NCBI GenBank assembly: GCA_013336275.1 | Contig: JAAXUA010000009.1 | Span: forward strand, 1 to 33,814 | Direction: 5' to 3' | DNA: 33,814 bases | From: Candidatus Falkowbacteria bacterium | GTDB lineage: Bacteria; Patescibacteriota; Patescibacteriia; Patescibacteriales; GWE2-39-37 | In this document: piece by piece, positions 20,297-25,700 of the stretch | Position numbering within the stretch: position 1 is the first letter of the stretch | Layout of the letters: each line of letters starts with the position of its first letter | Program-made: the position numbers and the translations under genes | Notes under the pieces: model-generated | What the model was told of the DNA's origin: nothing | Seen by the model: only the letters and a program-made list of their open reading frames with translations | Database searches by the model: none

Positions 20297-21133
20297 TTAT
20301 TCACTATCCTCCTCTGCGACATCTGCAATTTCATCCGATATTCGTTTAATAAGCAGCTTTAATGACGTTCTGTCCAGGGCGATAATTTTCTTTGTGCCAT
20401 AAACAAGGTTTAACTCCTTCATTAAACCTCTCACTTTAGATCTTGATTTGGCAAATTCGGCATTAGAACTCAAAAAATCGAGTACCGATATTAAGATTCT
20501 GTTCGACCTGCCCATGGAACGTTCTAGTACTTGCTGATAAATATCCTGCGTTGAAAGCAGCACACTAGTGTAAAAATATGGATCCTCATTCTTTAGATCT
20601 CCGAAAAATTCTGGATCAACTTCCCAAGGTGCATAGGTAAGGTGAGCCGCCCACCATAAACGAGCGAGCGCATGTCGCCTCAAATCGCGATCACTATCAC
20701 CAACCGCAAACCAATGTTCAAACAAATACCGAATCGCTTTTGCCTTCTTTTCATCGTCCTGCTCAATATCTGCATAGGCTCCGTCAAGTCCCCAGCGGGC
20801 AATCGTATACTTCCTAAATTCAACGTGGCTCAAATACATCCACAGGCGCGGATCAGACGCTTGAGTCTCGTCGATATCTTTATAATAACGATGCAAAGCG
20901 ATTGCATTTTGAAGATCTGCTGAAACTGGATCCTTCTCAGGAACCTTAAGCTCTGGCTTTCTTCCTTCAAGCGTAATCGTTGATGATAACACCTGACTTT
21001 CGTCAACCGAAAAATCTTCTTCGAAATAACTAGCAAGCGATATACCGGAATATAGATTATTGCGCAATCTCTCCACTACCGCTGATTTAAAAATCTTTTG
21101 CGTTATTGTTTTACTCATAGAAGTCTTTTTCAT
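20297..21133 (-). CDS. DUF6339-like uncharacterised protein of the GHKL unit
   Basis: A 278-aa soluble, mostly helical protein. I think it belongs to the family called DUF6339, with moderate certainty. The middle contains DPRLWMYLSHVEFRKYTIARWG and later RRHALARLWWAAHLTYAPWE, both dense in aromatic and basic residues. The C-terminal part looks like a helical DNA- or protein-binding region (LIKRISDEIADVAEEDSE). No nuclease, methylase, ATPase or helicase motif is visible. The gene overlaps the preceding 282-aa gene by 23 bp, so the two are tightly coupled. It is the last gene of the unit 71-aa protein - GHKL ATPase - 282-aa protein - this protein. Context implies a role in restriction or another anti-phage mechanism; its activity is unknown. 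Confidence 0.75.
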   Translation of the reverse strand: MKKTSMSKTITQKIFKSAVVERLRNNLYSGISLASYFEEDFSVDESQVLSSTITLEGRKPELKVPEKDPVSADLQNAIALHRYYKDIDETQASDPRLWMYLSHVEFRKYTIARWGLDGAYADIEQDDEKKAKAIRYLFEHWFAVGDSDRDLRRHALARLWWAAHLTYAPWEVDPEFFGDLKNEDPYFYTSVLLSTQDIYQQVLERSMGRSNRILISVLDFLSSNAEFAKSRSKVRGLMKELNLVYGTKKIIALDRTSLKLLIKRISDEIADVAEEDSE

Positions 21134-21959
21134 CTTCTTCGTTAATAATAGTTTCCATTCCCTTGAGCCCTCGTGCTATGGGGTGGTCAAGAATTTTTTG
21201 CGCTGCTTCTAACGGATCCTTTTCTTCAAGCTTCTTCGACTCAAGGATTGCCTGAAGTCTTCCAAACCAATTAAGACCGCTATATTCTGCTGATGAATTT
21301 CGCACTTGATAAATCGAGTCAGCCAGTGCGGGTAGCACTATTGCGCTGTGCAGTATGCCAAGGAGTTGCTTTTGCTTTCGCACTTCGAGATAATTGCGCC
21401 AGTCTTCTTTCGACAGGACTATGGTTATCTTTTCGTTGTCATAATCAATTTGCATTGGCCCTTCCTGAATGCTGCCCTCCATAATTGACATAAATGATGA
21501 CACCGGAGGGCGCAAAGGATCAAATGACTTCTCTGCAATGAATGACGCTTGACCACCTACTGCCAATACATCACCGGAATCAACATCGAATAATGCATTA
21601 TCATAGTCCTTGTGAGGCTGTGACGGTTTATACCCGCGAATATCCTGGTCTGCGCAAACATAAAATCCGACAGTGACTTGCTCGCGCAACCTTTCTGCTG
21701 GAATGGAAAAGTTTTGTTCGCGCTCGCGGGAAGCAAAGCTTGTACGATAAAACGTTCGTCGACAGCTTACTTCGGTAACATACGATGCCTTGCCCTTCTT
21801 TAACATGTCTTCAATTGCAACATTATTTAGAGCAAACAACGGCCGCAATTCAATCGTATCTCGCCCGAGCTGGTAGGTGAATTCAACTTTAAATTCGCCA
21901 CCAAGGTCGTCACCATTGCCAAGAACAGGATGCGGGTAGGATTTTGAATTAATTTTCAT
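21111..21959 (-). CDS. Uncharacterised protein of the GHKL unit, 282 aa
   Basis: A 282-aa protein with two apparent parts. The N-terminal part (about 1-190) is beta-rich and begins KSYPHPVLGNGDDLGG, an opening I have an impression of having seen in proteins of defence loci. It includes VSCRRTFYRTSF with conserved-looking Cys and Arg residues. The C-terminal part (about 195-282) is helical (WRNYLEVRKQKQLLGILHSAIVLPALADSIYQV). I see no catalytic motif. The gene overlaps the GHKL gene by 11 bp and the 278-aa gene by 23 bp, which argues for co-translation and complex formation. The function is unknown; a structural or target-binding partner of the GHKL ATPase is the simplest inference. Confidence 0.75.
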   Translation of the reverse strand: MKINSKSYPHPVLGNGDDLGGEFKVEFTYQLGRDTIELRPLFALNNVAIEDMLKKGKASYVTEVSCRRTFYRTSFASREREQNFSIPAERLREQVTVGFYVCADQDIRGYKPSQPHKDYDNALFDVDSGDVLAVGGQASFIAEKSFDPLRPPVSSFMSIMEGSIQEGPMQIDYDNEKITIVLSKEDWRNYLEVRKQKQLLGILHSAIVLPALADSIYQVRNSSAEYSGLNWFGRLQAILESKKLEEKDPLEAAQKILDHPIARGLKGMETIINEEDEKDFYE

Positions 21960-23805
21960 ATGATTCTATGCCTAGGGTATATCTTCGATTAGAAGGAAGC
22001 CGGACCGCAATTCTTGCCGTTTCGCCCACCTTAATAACTAAGTCCTTAATAAAAGCTTCTCCAATTTTATATTCCTTGCCGGTTGCAAAATCTACGGCTG
22101 ACGCAATGTCAACTGGATAGCCACCATCATCACCAACGGCCACTAGGCGTATTGCCCCCTCGCAATTTTCCTTCGCAGAAATGGCCAGGCGGTATTCAAT
22201 GCCATTTTTTGTTTTTTGAGCAAAGCCGCGAAATCTTATCAGGGAGGTATTAATACGCATGCCCTCACTGTCACCCGTCTTTGTTCCCGTTCCTTTACCG
22301 GGTTTTCCTCCACCCGATTCCTGCGGCTTTTCCTGCAGTATTTTATCAATCTGTTTATTCGTAACCTGGCTTTTGCGCACAATCACGTCCGGTATAATCT
22401 CAGCTGATTTTTTATCCGCACCGACCTCTCGCCCAGATTCTATATCTGACGCTTGACCAGTCTCTTCAATTGCATTACTGCTATCTGACGGCATGTAATC
22501 GCGCTCTTCCGTGTCAGGCAAATAACGGTCTAGGCCGGGGATGTCCTCTGGTTCGCTTGTAATCGATTCCGACATTAAACGCAGAGAGTCTTTTACAAAT
22601 GCTTCAAGTTCAGACATGGCTGCGGTTCCATTCTTTGCGCGATTTCGATCCCATTTATCATGGGCGGGTGGCTCAAGATCACGCAACATCGCATTGCCTT
22701 TGTCATTTTCACATATAAAAACCCCGGAGTAGGGTTCGCGCAGTACTCGGTAACCGCGCTCGAATACTAGCATTTTTGGCTTGCGAACCATCATTACTTG
22801 CCCAGGAAAACCGTCCTCTTTTCTAACATACAAAGATACTTCACCCAAATGCTTCAATTCTTTGGAGAACGTTTGCGTGGGATTTGTAACCGCTTCATAA
22901 TAATACCGGGCGTCAAGTGCATCGTACTTATCAAGGCAATACCCTATGTTTGCTTCATTAATCACGACTTCAGCGCCATCGCGAACGACAACCTCAAGAT
23001 TTCCATGAAAAATCGAAAGCCAGAAGTTATGAAGAACTGAACGAATTAATTTTCCCTCCCACTCTTCATCTGATTCATAGCCCATTACAAAAATATCGGT
23101 GCCACGTTCTGTGCGCGTAAGAAACTCTGGAATAAGTGCTTCATCTCGAATTGCATGCCTTTCCAAACCAAAGAACCCAACTCCCTGACGTATATCCCCT
23201 TCGTCATCGCAATGACTCACAAGACGAGCCTTACCCTGACACACAAGCTGACCTTGGTCATTCACACTCACATAAAATGCTGTACGCAATGAAGATGCTG
23301 CAATCGGCGCACCCTTGCCTATTCCGAATGATCCACCAGTAGCTCCTTTTGCGGAGCTTACGCCTGTCGCCTTAACAAGGCGGTACCAGTTGCCGTTAGT
23401 GTCATCGTCTGCACCGGAAAGTCCCTTTGTATTAAAATCGCTGATTTTTAAAACGCTTAACTTTTTAGCCTTGAGTGTTTCAATCGCTTTTGTAAAAAAC
23501 GCCTCTGCTCGATCCTGCCCCTTTGATCGCTCTCGGCAACGCAGAATGCGATCAAGCAGTTCATCTCGGCCTGAGAGCTGATTTGTTGGAATTGTAAAAC
23601 GTTCAAAAACTACAACAACCGGCTTTTTGTTATCGAGTCGGGCATCTACCGAATTTTGTATTGCCTCGCGTGCGATGTATTTTTCATGGTCGCCCTGAAA
23701 ATACTCGAGTTGTGAATCAGAAAACCCCTGTTCTTCTCCGCCACCAGTGCTCGGAAAAAACCATTCAGGAGAAATTCCATCACCAGCAGCTGTTTCTTTC
23801 TGCAT
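21949..23805 (-). CDS. GHKL ATPase (MutL/MORC-like), defence-associated
   Basis: A 618-aa protein with an N-terminal Bergerat-fold ATPase. The N-box is REAIQNSVDAR (46-56; E47, N51, D54), the G1 region is ISDFNTKGLSG (121-131; D123, G128) and the G2 lid is GGSFGIGKG (157-165). A transducer-like region continues to about 420 and includes a dense run of positively charged and aromatic residues (MVRKPKMLVFERGYRVLREP). A disordered linker (about 430-520, with GGGKPGKGTGTKTG) leads to a beta-rich C-terminal domain (about 525-618). Proteins of this MORC/paraMORC type are known from comparative genomics in restriction-modification neighbourhoods. ATP-driven dimer closure around DNA is the family's expected activity. 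The gene follows the 71-aa gene by 11 bp. It lacks a MutL endonuclease motif. Confidence 0.87.
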   Translation of the reverse strand: MQKETAAGDGISPEWFFPSTGGGEEQGFSDSQLEYFQGDHEKYIAREAIQNSVDARLDNKKPVVVVFERFTIPTNQLSGRDELLDRILRCRERSKGQDRAEAFFTKAIETLKAKKLSVLKISDFNTKGLSGADDDTNGNWYRLVKATGVSSAKGATGGSFGIGKGAPIAASSLRTAFYVSVNDQGQLVCQGKARLVSHCDDEGDIRQGVGFFGLERHAIRDEALIPEFLTRTERGTDIFVMGYESDEEWEGKLIRSVLHNFWLSIFHGNLEVVVRDGAEVVINEANIGYCLDKYDALDARYYYEAVTNPTQTFSKELKHLGEVSLYVRKEDGFPGQVMMVRKPKMLVFERGYRVLREPYSGVFICENDKGNAMLRDLEPPAHDKWDRNRAKNGTAAMSELEAFVKDSLRLMSESITSEPEDIPGLDRYLPDTEERDYMPSDSSNAIEETGQASDIESGREVGADKKSAEIIPDVIVRKSQVTNKQIDKILQEKPQESGGGKPGKGTGTKTGDSEGMRINTSLIRFRGFAQKTKNGIEYRLAISAKENCEGAIRLVAVGDDGGYPVDIASAVDFATGKEYKIGEAFIKDLVIKVGETARIAVRLPSNRRYTLGIESYEN

Positions 23806-23816
23806 AAATGTTATAT

Positions 23817-24032
23817 TTACAATTTGAATTCTTTTTCCTTATTAGGAAATGTAAACTTAGACTTAGTTTCCCTAACCTTGCGCTCTATTTCAGAAAATAT
23901 TTTGTTCACATCCTCCTCCGTATAATCGTAATGACTTCTATTCGAACAATTGCCCAGAATTTTTATGCGTCGCAAAACTTCGTTTGTTCGCATAACCCCG
24001 AGTCTTTTAAAATTTTCTCTTCGTTTATCCAT
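23817..24032 (-). CDS. Small charged protein leading the GHKL unit
   Basis: A 71-aa basic, helical protein with the segment VLRRIKILGNCSNRSHYDYTEEDVNKIFSEIERKV. From memory, small proteins of this pattern recur beside DNA methyltransferases and restriction genes, but I know no function. It could be a control or adaptor protein. It is the first gene of the second transcription unit of the island: a promoter lies at 24071-24099 and the GHKL gene starts 11 bp after its stop. The start codon lacks a Shine-Dalgarno site. Confidence 0.75.
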   Translation of the reverse strand: MDKRRENFKRLGVMRTNEVLRRIKILGNCSNRSHYDYTEEDVNKIFSEIERKVRETKSKFTFPNKEKEFKL

Positions 24033-24070
24033 ATATGAACTAATTATATAAATATACTGATTATAATGTA

Positions 24071-24099
24071 TATATAGCGCATATTTACAAAAATGTCAA
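24071..24099 (-). promoter_or_regulatory. Sigma-70-like promoter for the GHKL unit
   Basis: On the minus strand TTGACA (24094-24099) is followed 17 bp later by TATATA (24071-24076). It lies just beyond the terminator of the vsr unit, so the GHKL genes form a separate transcript. A TATAAT a few bases further on is a second possible -10. Confidence 0.6.
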
Positions 24100-24108
24100 T
24101 GCCAATAC

Positions 24109-24137
24109 ATAAAAACCCCTTAGCTAGGGGTTTTTAT
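24109..24137. terminator. Intrinsic terminator after the Vsr gene
   Basis: A 12-bp stem, ATAAAAACCCCT with AGGGGTTTTTAT, closes a five-base loop (TAGCT). The vsr stop codon is inside it. It divides the island into two transcription units. Confidence 0.9.
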
Positions 24138-24536
24138 TAAAAAATCTTTGATTTTTTCTAAAGTCCTTTCCGTCGATTTTTTCAATTGATGCTCCCAAAC
24201 CCTGAGCAATTGCCACCCATCACGACGCAAAACTACGCGGTTCTTTTTATCTCTAGCCATATTGGCCAAAATTTTTTCCCGCCAATATTCTTTTGGTATC
24301 CGGCCTTGCAATTTTTCAAACCTATAACCATGCCAAAAATCTCCGTCAATAAAAACAGCAAGTTTCTTCGATGGCACCGCGATGTCAGGTCGGCCCTTAA
24401 CTTTATCATAGTGCTTTTGAAAATAAATTTTGTTTTTCCTCAAGTAAGAAAAAACGAGTTTTTCGATGCCTGTGTTTTTTGAGCGTATTCGCGACATAAT
24501 GTCGCTGCGCTTTTCTCTTGAAAATACATCGGCCAT
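24120..24536 (-). CDS. vsr: Vsr-family very short patch repair endonuclease
   Basis: A 138-aa Vsr homologue. It opens MADVFSREKRSDIMSRIRSKNT as expected, carries KGRPDIAV with D51 at the position of the catalytic Asp of E. coli Vsr, and then FIDGDFWHG (62-70) with the F-W-H of the active site; the usual His at 64 is Asp. The Cys residues that bind structural zinc in the E. coli enzyme are absent. Vsr nicks 5' of the T in T:G mismatches made by deamination of 5-methylcytosine; related proteins act as restriction enzymes in some systems. The ATG at 24536 comes 4 nt after the methyltransferase stop; a start at 24557 would overlap it. Tight linkage with a C5 methyltransferase supports repair at methylated sites, but a restriction role is possible here. 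Confidence 0.9.
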   Translation of the reverse strand: MADVFSREKRSDIMSRIRSKNTGIEKLVFSYLRKNKIYFQKHYDKVKGRPDIAVPSKKLAVFIDGDFWHGYRFEKLQGRIPKEYWREKILANMARDKKNRVVLRRDGWQLLRVWEHQLKKSTERTLEKIKDFLIKTPS

Positions 24537-24540
24537 GCGA

Positions 24541-25515
24541 CTAAGACTCAAGGGCAATCCTTATGTTTTCAGCTATACGGGCAATTACCGGCACTGTTAC
24601 GGAATTGCCGATTTGTTTATACAGATGAATATCTGATTGGCTCCTTGGAAAGACGAATGATTCGGGCAACCCCTGAAGGCGCGCGCACTCCCGGGGGGTT
24701 AACTTTCTAATGCCACGCGAATCTCTAACAATTGGAACGTTGTGCCCGCCCATCCCCATGCTGGCTGTTAGCGTTGGACAGACGCCATTTTTATTTTCCC
24801 TTACATAAACTCGACGATACTGATATACCCTGTCTTTACGCTTCACTGCCTCTTTAAGCTTTGGGTAAATAAATTCATTAGTTTTATCATAATAAAATTT
24901 ACCGTCAACATTTTTTTCAAGAATAGAAAACAGCGACTTTGTGAGCGGTTTTTTGTCCGGGAAACGAAAATTCATTAACTTCCTAGGAGATCGAAAACCG
25001 ACAATATATATCCTCTCCCTTGCTTGAGGAACATTCCCGTACTCCATGCTATTAAGAACTTGGGCTTTCATAAAATAACCTGCGTCCCTTAACACATCCT
25101 GAACTTTTTTAAATGTTTTTTCATCGTCATGGTACTGAAGATGTTTAACATTTTCCAAAAATACGGCTTCTGGCTTCCTGGCTTTTAATATTTCGATAAC
25201 TGCAAATAAAAGATTTCCCCTGCCTTCGTCCTCAAAACCTCGCTTATGCCCAGCAACAGAAAAAGGCTGACATGGAAAACCGCCCAATAATATATCAAAG
25301 TTTTTTGGTATTCGTTTTATGTTCTCAGGCATCACAACATCCAAAAGACTTGTTTCATCTATTTCTCCAAAATTATGCCGATACGTTTCTGCTGCCCATT
25401 TATCAAAGTCATTTGAATATATACATTCAAAACCAGCTGACTCAAAGCCCATTCTCACGCCTCCAATCCCGGCAAAAAGATCGATCGCTTTAAATTTATC
25501 TATTTTCTTTGCCAT
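24541..25515 (-). CDS. dcm: DNA (cytosine-5) methyltransferase
   Basis: A 324-aa m5C methyltransferase with all main motifs in order: I DLFAGIGG (12-19), IV GGFPCQPFS (78-86; nucleophile C82), VI ENV (121-123), VIII QARERIYIVGF (164-174), IX RKLTPRECARLQGLP (270-284) and X YKQIGNSV (299-306). The target recognition region between VIII and IX is short to medium, so a simple single target sequence is likely, though the sequence cannot be read. The gene overlaps the small HTH gene by 16 bp and is followed by vsr after 4 bp. It would protect host DNA in the island or mark self for the GHKL system. Very AT-rich codon use compared with ruvB or queA suggests acquisition from outside. Confidence 0.95.
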   Translation of the reverse strand: MAKKIDKFKAIDLFAGIGGVRMGFESAGFECIYSNDFDKWAAETYRHNFGEIDETSLLDVVMPENIKRIPKNFDILLGGFPCQPFSVAGHKRGFEDEGRGNLLFAVIEILKARKPEAVFLENVKHLQYHDDEKTFKKVQDVLRDAGYFMKAQVLNSMEYGNVPQARERIYIVGFRSPRKLMNFRFPDKKPLTKSLFSILEKNVDGKFYYDKTNEFIYPKLKEAVKRKDRVYQYRRVYVRENKNGVCPTLTASMGMGGHNVPIVRDSRGIRKLTPRECARLQGLPESFVFPRSQSDIHLYKQIGNSVTVPVIARIAENIRIALES

Positions 25516-25700
25516 AAATTATTTTGTCTTAGTCTCTTTTCTATTTCACTTCTGCGATACCTGCGATCTCCGCGAGCTCCAAATCGTATCGCCTTCAGGA
25601 ATCCGCTGTTATCCCACTTGCGCAAAGTGTTAGGATGGCATCCCAACAGGTCACATGCTTCGCTCAAGGTAATAATATCTTTGCTTAAAATAGGCATCAT
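25500..25700 (-). CDS. MerR/excisionase-type HTH protein, putative control protein
   Basis: A 66-aa protein that is a single helix-turn-helix of the MerR/AlpA (HTH_17) type: TLSEACDLLGCHPNTLRKWDNSGFLKAIRFG followed by RRYRRSEIEKRL, the wing and terminal helix. It is the first gene of the methyltransferase unit and overlaps the methyltransferase start by 16 bp. The likely role is to time expression of modification, as C proteins do in other systems, or to act as an excisionase-like factor; there is no integrase in the window. The start may be either of two adjacent ATGs (25700 or 25697). An inverted repeat GTTTAC/GTAAAC lies upstream at 25725-25753. Confidence 0.85.
   Translation of the reverse strand: MMPILSKDIITLSEACDLLGCHPNTLRKWDNSGFLKAIRFGARGDRRYRRSEIEKRLRQNNLWQRK

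What the first reader, a model, noticed from the sequence alone, without database searches (positions are those of the whole stretch)
20297..21959. Two overlapping genes for unassigned proteins likely form a complex with the GHKL ATPase
The GHKL, 282-aa and 278-aa genes overlap by 11 and 23 bp, which implies co-translation. Neither small protein shows a nuclease or ATPase motif. The 282-aa protein opens with YPHPVLGNGDDLGG and has a beta-rich front and helical back; the 278-aa protein is helical with aromatic and basic clusters. One of them must supply the effector function if Vsr is only a repair enzyme.
Basis: partly seen in the sequence, partly recalled or inferred. Interest (0 to 1): 0.62.

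Follow-up and report, generated by a model that had tools for sequence, protein, structure and literature searches.

The report
GHKL-linked helper module of restriction systems
Two small bacterial genes next to a molecular-motor gene belong to a catalogued but unstudied anti-phage gene set; they look like non-cutting helper subunits that move as one unit between many different DNA-cutting defence systems, and an overlooked tiny gene in front of them turns out to accompany several unrelated motors of this kind.

Summary
The overlaps, gene sizes and lack of nuclease motifs are real. The proteins are not wholly unassigned: GHKL, 282-aa and 278-aa are PDC-M33A/B/C of PADLOC (E 6e-143, 5e-61, 4e-36); the 278-aa protein is Pfam DUF6339. 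The GHKL carries the ExxxH motif described for paraMORC2. In 90 loci from many phyla the order A-B-C is fixed and the three co-vary (Mantel r 0.91-0.93), against 0.57 for the neighbouring C5-methyltransferase. Searches started from B or C alone also land on this module. AlphaFold gives B an FN3-like beta sandwich plus helical tail, and C a helical fold without PDB or viral match; neither looks like a nuclease. A C5-methyltransferase lies near 35 of 46 well-flanked loci, Vsr near 22, and the restriction enzyme varies (HpaII, MutH/Sau3AI, EcoRII, NgoFVII, AlwI, HNH) or is absent. So B and C are most likely non-catalytic subunits of an ATP-driven accessory to modification-based restriction, with cutting by the partner nuclease; here the only candidate is a Vsr-like enzyme. 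Biochemistry untested.

The parts
21111..21959 (-). Gene B (282 aa), PDC-M33B; predicted FN3-like beta-sandwich front (about residues 20-182) and helical C-terminal part (184-280)
   Evidence: PADLOC PDLC04583 E=4.7e-61; no Pfam hit; AlphaFold mean pLDDT 92.9, pTM 0.65; FN3/cytokine-receptor-like Foldseek matches at E about 2e-3 to 2e-2
20297..21133 (-). Gene C (278 aa), DUF6339 / PDC-M33C; all-helical fold without known match; possible alternative start at 21118
   Evidence: Pfam PF19866 E=2.3e-40; PADLOC PDLC04586 E=3.6e-36; AlphaFold pLDDT 94.4, pTM 0.90; no PDB or BFVD match below E=0.9
21949..23805 (-). Gene A (618 aa), GHKL ATPase PDC-M33A, paraMORC2-type: N-box REAIQNSVDA, DFNTKGL, GGSFGIGK, ExxxH (E378, H382)
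   Evidence: PADLOC PDLC04582 E=6.1e-143; invariant columns in the alignment; ExxxH criterion from PMC2292703
23817..24032 (-). Gene S (71 aa), small conserved protein, first gene of the S-A-B-C unit; no family in Pfam or PADLOC
   Evidence: phmmer hits 1e-11 to 1e-20 directly upstream of A in other loci; profile searches seeded with S; no family
24120..24536 (-). Vsr-like endonuclease; ORF open from TTG 24557, likely start ATG 24536; catalytic E25/D51/H69/D97 positions kept, H64 to D, zinc ligands lost
   Evidence: TIGR00632 E=4.1e-32; alignment to E. coli Vsr 1cw0 and 39 linked Vsr
24541..25515 (-). C5-cytosine DNA methyltransferase (324 aa); the only one found in this genome
   Evidence: PF00145 E=3.3e-87; own-genome search
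24043..24072 (-). Promoter-like site before S (TATACA-18-TATAAT); by eye a second one, TTGACA-17-TATATA at 24099-24071
   Evidence: 10 of 12 matches, but total sites in the region are not above shuffles; sequence read
24111..24130 (.). Terminator-like hairpin CCCCTAGCTAAGGGG-TTTTT at the end of the Vsr gene, separating MTase-Vsr from S-A-B-C
   Evidence: (24117-24130) and sequence
25500..25700 (-). Small MerR/excisionase-like HTH ORF (66 aa) overlapping the MTase start; possible regulator
   Evidence: ORF; HTH assignment by eye only

Best explanation
S-A-B-C is a PDC-M33 module: a paraMORC2-type GHKL ATPase (A) with two dedicated non-catalytic subunits (B, C) and a small companion (S). Inferred mechanism: the GHKL dimer closes on DNA with ATP, B (FN3-like plus helical) and C (helical) give it partner and DNA contacts, and the complex licenses or stimulates the endonuclease of the methylation-based restriction system next to it, acting on DNA that lacks the host's 5-methylcytosine mark. 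The cutter differs between loci (HpaII, MutH/Sau3AI, EcoRII, NgoFVII, AlwI, HNH and others). In this window no restriction enzyme gene was seen beside the module, so the Vsr-like endonuclease in the adjacent transcript is the best candidate, as MutL stimulates Vsr. Shown: families, fixed gene order, co-variation, association with methyltransferases, folds. Inferred: complex formation, ATPase role, nuclease stimulation, target choice.
For: PADLOC/Pfam assignments. B next to A in 89 of 90 and C in 88 of 90 distinct loci; the gaps are at contig ends in L074 (B, C) and L015 (C). Mantel r A-B 0.93, A-C 0.93, B-C 0.91, A-MTase 0.57. B- or C-only searches give the same module. C5-MTase in 35 of 46 well-flanked loci, 25 within 1 kb, and Vsr in 22, always with an MTase. 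Unrelated restriction enzymes beside the module. Partner type changes at least 22 times over 13 labels on the A tree. No nuclease-like fold or invariant acidic/His set in B or C. Catalytic E, D, H, D positions kept in all 39 linked Vsr. MutL binds and stimulates Vsr in Neisseria (PMC6116569); in the CglI/NgoAVII R-M systems an ATPase subunit is needed for cleavage by a separate nuclease subunit (PMC4267653).
Against: No interface was predicted and no biochemistry exists in the library for this module. A coherent clade across phyla (L037, L039, L050, L055, L058, L065, L067, L070) has MTase-A-B-C, usually with Vsr, and no restriction enzyme was recognised, so the module may be sufficient without one. 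About a quarter of well-flanked loci show no C5-MTase. The restriction-enzyme census is incomplete, because only representative neighbours were scanned and the tallies show only the 25 commonest families.
Confidence: 0.55

Rival explanations
1. The MTase plus S-A-B-C set is a self-sufficient exclusion system without cutting: the GHKL complex topologically clamps or compacts incoming unmethylated DNA, as eukaryotic MORC proteins do, and Vsr only repairs T:G mismatches made by 5mC deamination.
For: No nuclease domain recognised in A, B, C or S; a REase-less MTase-A-B-C(-Vsr) operon clade is inherited across phyla; Vsr is a usual repair companion of C5-MTases; C. elegans MORC-1 entraps and condenses DNA (abstract of PMC8277788).
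Against: In many loci the module sits beside a bona fide restriction enzyme, which a self-sufficient system would not need; A has not been shown to bind DNA.
Confidence: 0.2
2. B or C is itself the effector nuclease, with an unrecognised fold.
For: C has no structural match at all, and H103, H140 and D73 are kept in about 85-93% of 68 sequences, so an unknown active site cannot be excluded.
Against: The invariant residues are Trp/Tyr/Pro/Ala, not acidic or His sets; B is FN3-like, an adhesion-type fold; the module accompanies dedicated nucleases in many loci.
Confidence: 0.08
3. The module protects the host rather than attacks phage: it controls the neighbouring R-M system (self-protection, repair of 5mC deamination with Vsr, or regulation), as a MutL-like repair set.
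For: Constant company of Vsr and C5-MTase; MutL-Vsr precedent.
Against: 22 of 46 loci have Vsr, so it is not obligatory; A-B-C also occurs with AlwI-type adenine systems, MmeI and an SspD-like fusion where no 5mC repair is needed.
Confidence: 0.12

Closest known systems
PDC-M33 (PADLOC phage defence candidate, components A, B, C)
   Same: All three proteins match the M33A, M33B and M33C models end to end, in the same order
   Different: The window adds a fourth gene S, not among the PADLOC or Pfam models tested, and sits behind a C5-MTase and a Vsr-like gene
paraMORC2 GHKL ATPases of R-M loci (Iyer, Abhiman and Aravind 2008, PMC2292703)
   Same: GHKL motifs, ExxxH motif, neighbourhoods with cytosine methylases, Vsr and endonucleases
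   Different: The text read does not describe dedicated partners B and C or the small S gene (figure 2 names unnamed X and Z domains, which could not be inspected)
Mza system (MTase, MutL-like ATPase, Z1, DUF, AIPR)
   Same: MTase plus MutL-like ATPase logic
   Different: No Z1, AIPR or Mza hit in the window genes; one relative, L088, has an MzaE/AIPR-like gene nearby
CglI / NgoAVII ATP-dependent R-M (PMC4267653)
   Same: A separate ATPase subunit enables a nuclease subunit encoded beside a C5-MTase
   Different: There the ATPase is a DEAD-family helicase, here a GHKL; the mechanism is only an analogy
Vsr-MutL repair (E. coli; Neisseria, PMC6116569)
   Same: Vsr-like nuclease next to a MutL-like GHKL ATPase
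   Different: The window's GHKL is paraMORC2-like, not MutL, and its Vsr has lost the zinc-binding and H64 positions

Membership tests
PDC-M33 | Adjacent genes matching M33A, M33B and M33C | tested here: met
   E 6.1e-143, 4.7e-61, 3.6e-36, consecutive and overlapping
PDC-M33 | Anti-phage activity | not testable with these tools
   It is a 'candidate'; no paper on it was found in the library
DUF6339 (PF19866) | Pfam score above the gathering cut-off | tested here: met
   138.6 bits against a cut-off of 23.2
paraMORC2 | GHKL ATP-binding motifs | tested here: met
   REAIQNSVDA, DFNTKGL, GGSFGIGK conserved in the alignment; Pfam itself gives no hit
[quoted passage not shown]
   E378 and H382 invariant in 11 sequences; that this lies in an S5 fold was not tested
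paraMORC2 | R-M gene neighbourhood | tested here: met
   C5-MTase in 35 of 46 well-flanked loci
Mza | Z1 and AIPR genes | tested here: not met
   No such hit among the five genes scanned against PADLOC
Complete type II R-M system | A cognate restriction endonuclease gene | tested here: inconclusive
   No restriction enzyme family recognised near the window (window neighbours were among those tallied, but singletons are not listed); NgoFVII-type enzyme absent from the genome
Vsr (functional repair endonuclease) | Catalytic residues corresponding to E. coli E25, D51, H64, H69, D97 | tested here: inconclusive
   Four of five kept, H64 replaced by D; zinc ligand positions lost

The most novel reading that the evidence does not exclude
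The REase-less MTase + S-A-B-C cassette is a restriction system that excludes unmethylated DNA by ATP-driven clamping or compaction rather than by cutting, a bacterial counterpart of eukaryotic MORC silencing; S is a general small subunit of such GHKL machines.
Probability: 0.15. Interest if true: 0.8.

Novelty: new member of a known kind. Interest (0 to 1): 0.5.

Why it matters
GHKL (MORC-like) ATPases have been noted in restriction loci since 2008, but what they do there is unknown. The data give the parts list of one such machine (S, A, B, C), show that three parts travel as one unit while the methyltransferase and cutting enzyme are exchanged, and expose a small companion protein shared by several unrelated GHKL families. 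That makes a concrete experiment possible: add or remove the module beside one well-known enzyme such as an HpaII-, Sau3AI- or EcoRII-type system. It may also bear on how MORC proteins first came to read DNA methylation.

Tried and rejected
Nuclease fold hidden in B or C: rejected as unlikely. Sequence relatives of A, B or C in solved structures: none convincing (the bromodomain hits of the A profile at E 0.002-0.015 were taken as chance). A single-protein scan of genome contigs with B found nothing, and an alignment of diverse B was too divergent to scan with; the GHKL alignment worked. NgoFVII-type enzyme as missing cutter of this genome: not found, although the window's MTase is nearest, after L018, to MTases paired with that enzyme in L089 and L019. 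C-terminal fusions of C (L035, L049, L080, L082, L084, L096) as a disguised nuclease: no Pfam domain found in the three scanned (L035, L049, L084); the L079 fusion is SspD-like. DUF6339 and PDC-M33 in the paper library: no paper.

Full report
What is there. On the minus strand of the window, in order of transcription: a small HTH-like ORF (25700-25500), a C5-cytosine methyltransferase (25515-24541), a Vsr-like endonuclease (likely 24536-24120), a 71-aa ORF here called S (24032-23817), the GHKL ATPase A (23805-21949), B (282 aa, 21959-21111) and C (278 aa, 21133-20297). The overlaps of 11 and 23 bp are correct; an in-frame ATG at 21118 would make the second 8 bp. A terminator-like hairpin lies at the end of the Vsr gene and promoter-like hexamers before S (and by eye), so S-A-B-C is probably its own transcript. 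These sites are consensus matches only, and promoter-like sites in the region are not more frequent than in shuffles. The genome is 1.2 Mb, 97% complete. One genome that the tool places in the same phylum, G304, carries the same contig as a Candidatus Doudnabacteria record (L015 and L023 have the same length and match positions), so the phylum is inferred to be Patescibacteria/CPR.

Families. A, B and C match PDC-M33A, -B and -C of PADLOC over their whole length, and C is Pfam DUF6339. PDC means phage defence candidate (use of the term: PMC11514479); no paper in the library names PDC-M33 or DUF6339. A has the GHKL motifs and invariant E378 and H382 (LEPPAHDKW), which is the ExxxH feature given for the paraMORC2 family in PMC2292703. 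S has no hit above threshold in Pfam or PADLOC.

Fixed module. A pattern scan with A gave 80 loci in many phyla. With plasmid, phage, viral-contig and genome loci added and duplicates removed there are 90, of which 89 have B and 88 have C. The exceptions are explained by contig ends: L074 ends inside A, and L015 ends 221 bp after B. A-B overlap in 91% of 87 loci, and B-C lie within 25 bp in 99%. Pairwise identities of A, B and C are correlated at r 0.91-0.93, and those of A with the neighbouring C5-MTase at 0.57; no permutation out of 300 reached these values in any case. Searches seeded with B alone and with C alone in two phyla found the same module each time, apart from one degenerate C fragment with three stops (L109). 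In L108/L111 the B match is weak (1e-4) but A, B and C are all present.

Partners. In 46 loci with at least 5 kb on both sides, 35 have a C5-MTase (25 within 1 kb) and 22 have a Vsr, always together with an MTase. Restriction enzymes beside the module are unrelated to each other: EcoRII-C (L006), Sau3AI/MutH (L009, L062), AlwI (L007, L010), HpaII (L015), NgoFVII (L019), HNH (L014), AAA_5 types (L045, L068), NOV_C (L011), MmeI (L008); a C protein fused to an SspD-like domain (L079) and an MzaE-like neighbour (L088) also occur. On a tree of A, 13 partner labels need at least 22 changes (least possible 12, shuffled mean 33.5), so partners are exchanged but not at random. The labels were set partly by hand from neighbour clusters. 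A clade across phyla (L037, L039, L050, L055, L058, L065, L067, L070) shows MTase-A-B-C, in most members followed by Vsr, without a recognised restriction enzyme. The census of restriction enzymes is incomplete, because only representatives were scanned and the tallies show the 25 commonest families.

Folds. Structure prediction from 75 and 68 homologues gave confident models (B: pLDDT 92.9, pTM 0.65; C: 94.4, pTM 0.90). The front of B resembles FN3-like sandwiches (cytokine receptors, beta-glucuronidase sandwich domains) at marginal E-values of 2e-3 and up, a fold and not a homology statement. C has no match in the PDB (best E 1.5) or among viral models (best E 0.9). Residues conserved in all or nearly all sequences are P11, T69, R72, W231, P260 in B and A92, W98, Y109, R113, W160, W161 in C. 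The best polar candidates in C (D73, H103, H140) are kept in 84-93%. This argues for scaffold or binding roles rather than catalysis.

Vsr. The window protein aligns to E. coli Vsr (1cw0, E=1e-15). E25, D51, H69 and D97 are kept, as in all 39 linked Vsr examined; H64 is D and the zinc positions H71, C73 and C117 are changed (the roles of these residues are from general knowledge). MutL stimulates Vsr in Neisseria (PMC6116569), and a Vsr-like protein triggers a DNA-damage response when its host lacks the cytosine methyltransferase (PMC12907096). In the window genome there is one C5-MTase and no NgoFVII-type enzyme.

The small gene S. S homologues lie directly before A in 36 of the 90 loci. In L089 an S homologue overlaps a different GHKL gene by 4 bp. 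A profile of S alone found 11 of 380 genomes of the window's phylum (three of them M33 loci) and 4 of 299 genomes of a second phylum, that of the Domibacillus genome holding L025. Reading ten of the non-window loci: one is M33 (L137), eight have another GHKL ATPase as the first or second gene after S (L129, L130, L131, L132, L134, L135, L136, L138), and one (L133) has none. The GHKL motifs were checked by script and Pfam; L131 and L134 hit HATPase_c_3, the others are supported by motifs only. By BLAST these ATPases fall into about five groups without alignable similarity to the window's A. In L132, L134 and L136 a Vsr and a C5-MTase also stand upstream, and in L129 a SIR2-like gene follows. 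I know of no description of this small protein as a GHKL partner, but a wider literature or family search was not possible.

Mechanism. The simplest account is that S-A-B-C is an ATP-dependent accessory of modification-based restriction: the GHKL dimer and its two dedicated subunits couple recognition of DNA lacking the host mark to whatever nuclease the locus offers. CglI/NgoAVII, where a separate ATPase subunit is needed for cleavage (PMC4267653), is the nearest tested analogy for how it could work, not a family relation. The main rival is exclusion without cutting, by DNA clamping or compaction as reported for eukaryotic MORC proteins (PMC8277788 abstract). The restriction-enzyme-less clade keeps this open.

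Verdict. Observation confirmed; interpretation partly supported; a new member of a catalogued candidate system with an added small gene and a clearer parts list. Nothing about activity, complex formation or phage protection has been shown here.

Noticed in passing
window 23817-24032; L129-L138; L089:3646-4002: The small S protein sits directly upstream of GHKL ATPases from several mutually unalignable families in R-M or defence loci, not only PDC-M33.
   Followed up: partly
L079:12815-14494: DUF6339 protein fused to an SspD-like (phosphorothioation, PAPS-reductase type) domain, suggesting the module also pairs with a non-methyl DNA mark.
   Followed up: no
L049, L080, L082, L096: In one supported clade A is shorter (557-590 aa) while C carries a C-terminal extension of about 200 aa; a domain may have moved from A to C.
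   Followed up: no
L129:3916-4953: An S-GHKL pair followed by a SIR2-like gene (PF13289 E=1e-12), a possible NAD-depleting GHKL system.
   Followed up: no
L064:4282-5919: A second GHKL-looking gene (545 aa) lies between Vsr and MTase in an M33 locus; three HATPase_c_3 proteins appear among neighbours of REase-less loci.
   Followed up: no
window 25500-25700: 66-aa MerR/excisionase-like HTH ORF overlapping the MTase start, possibly a control protein.
   Followed up: no
L130, L132, L135: S followed by a 667-717 aa GHKL and then a conserved-looking gene of 213-224 aa: a possible second three-gene GHKL module without PADLOC assignment for the small protein of L132.
   Followed up: no
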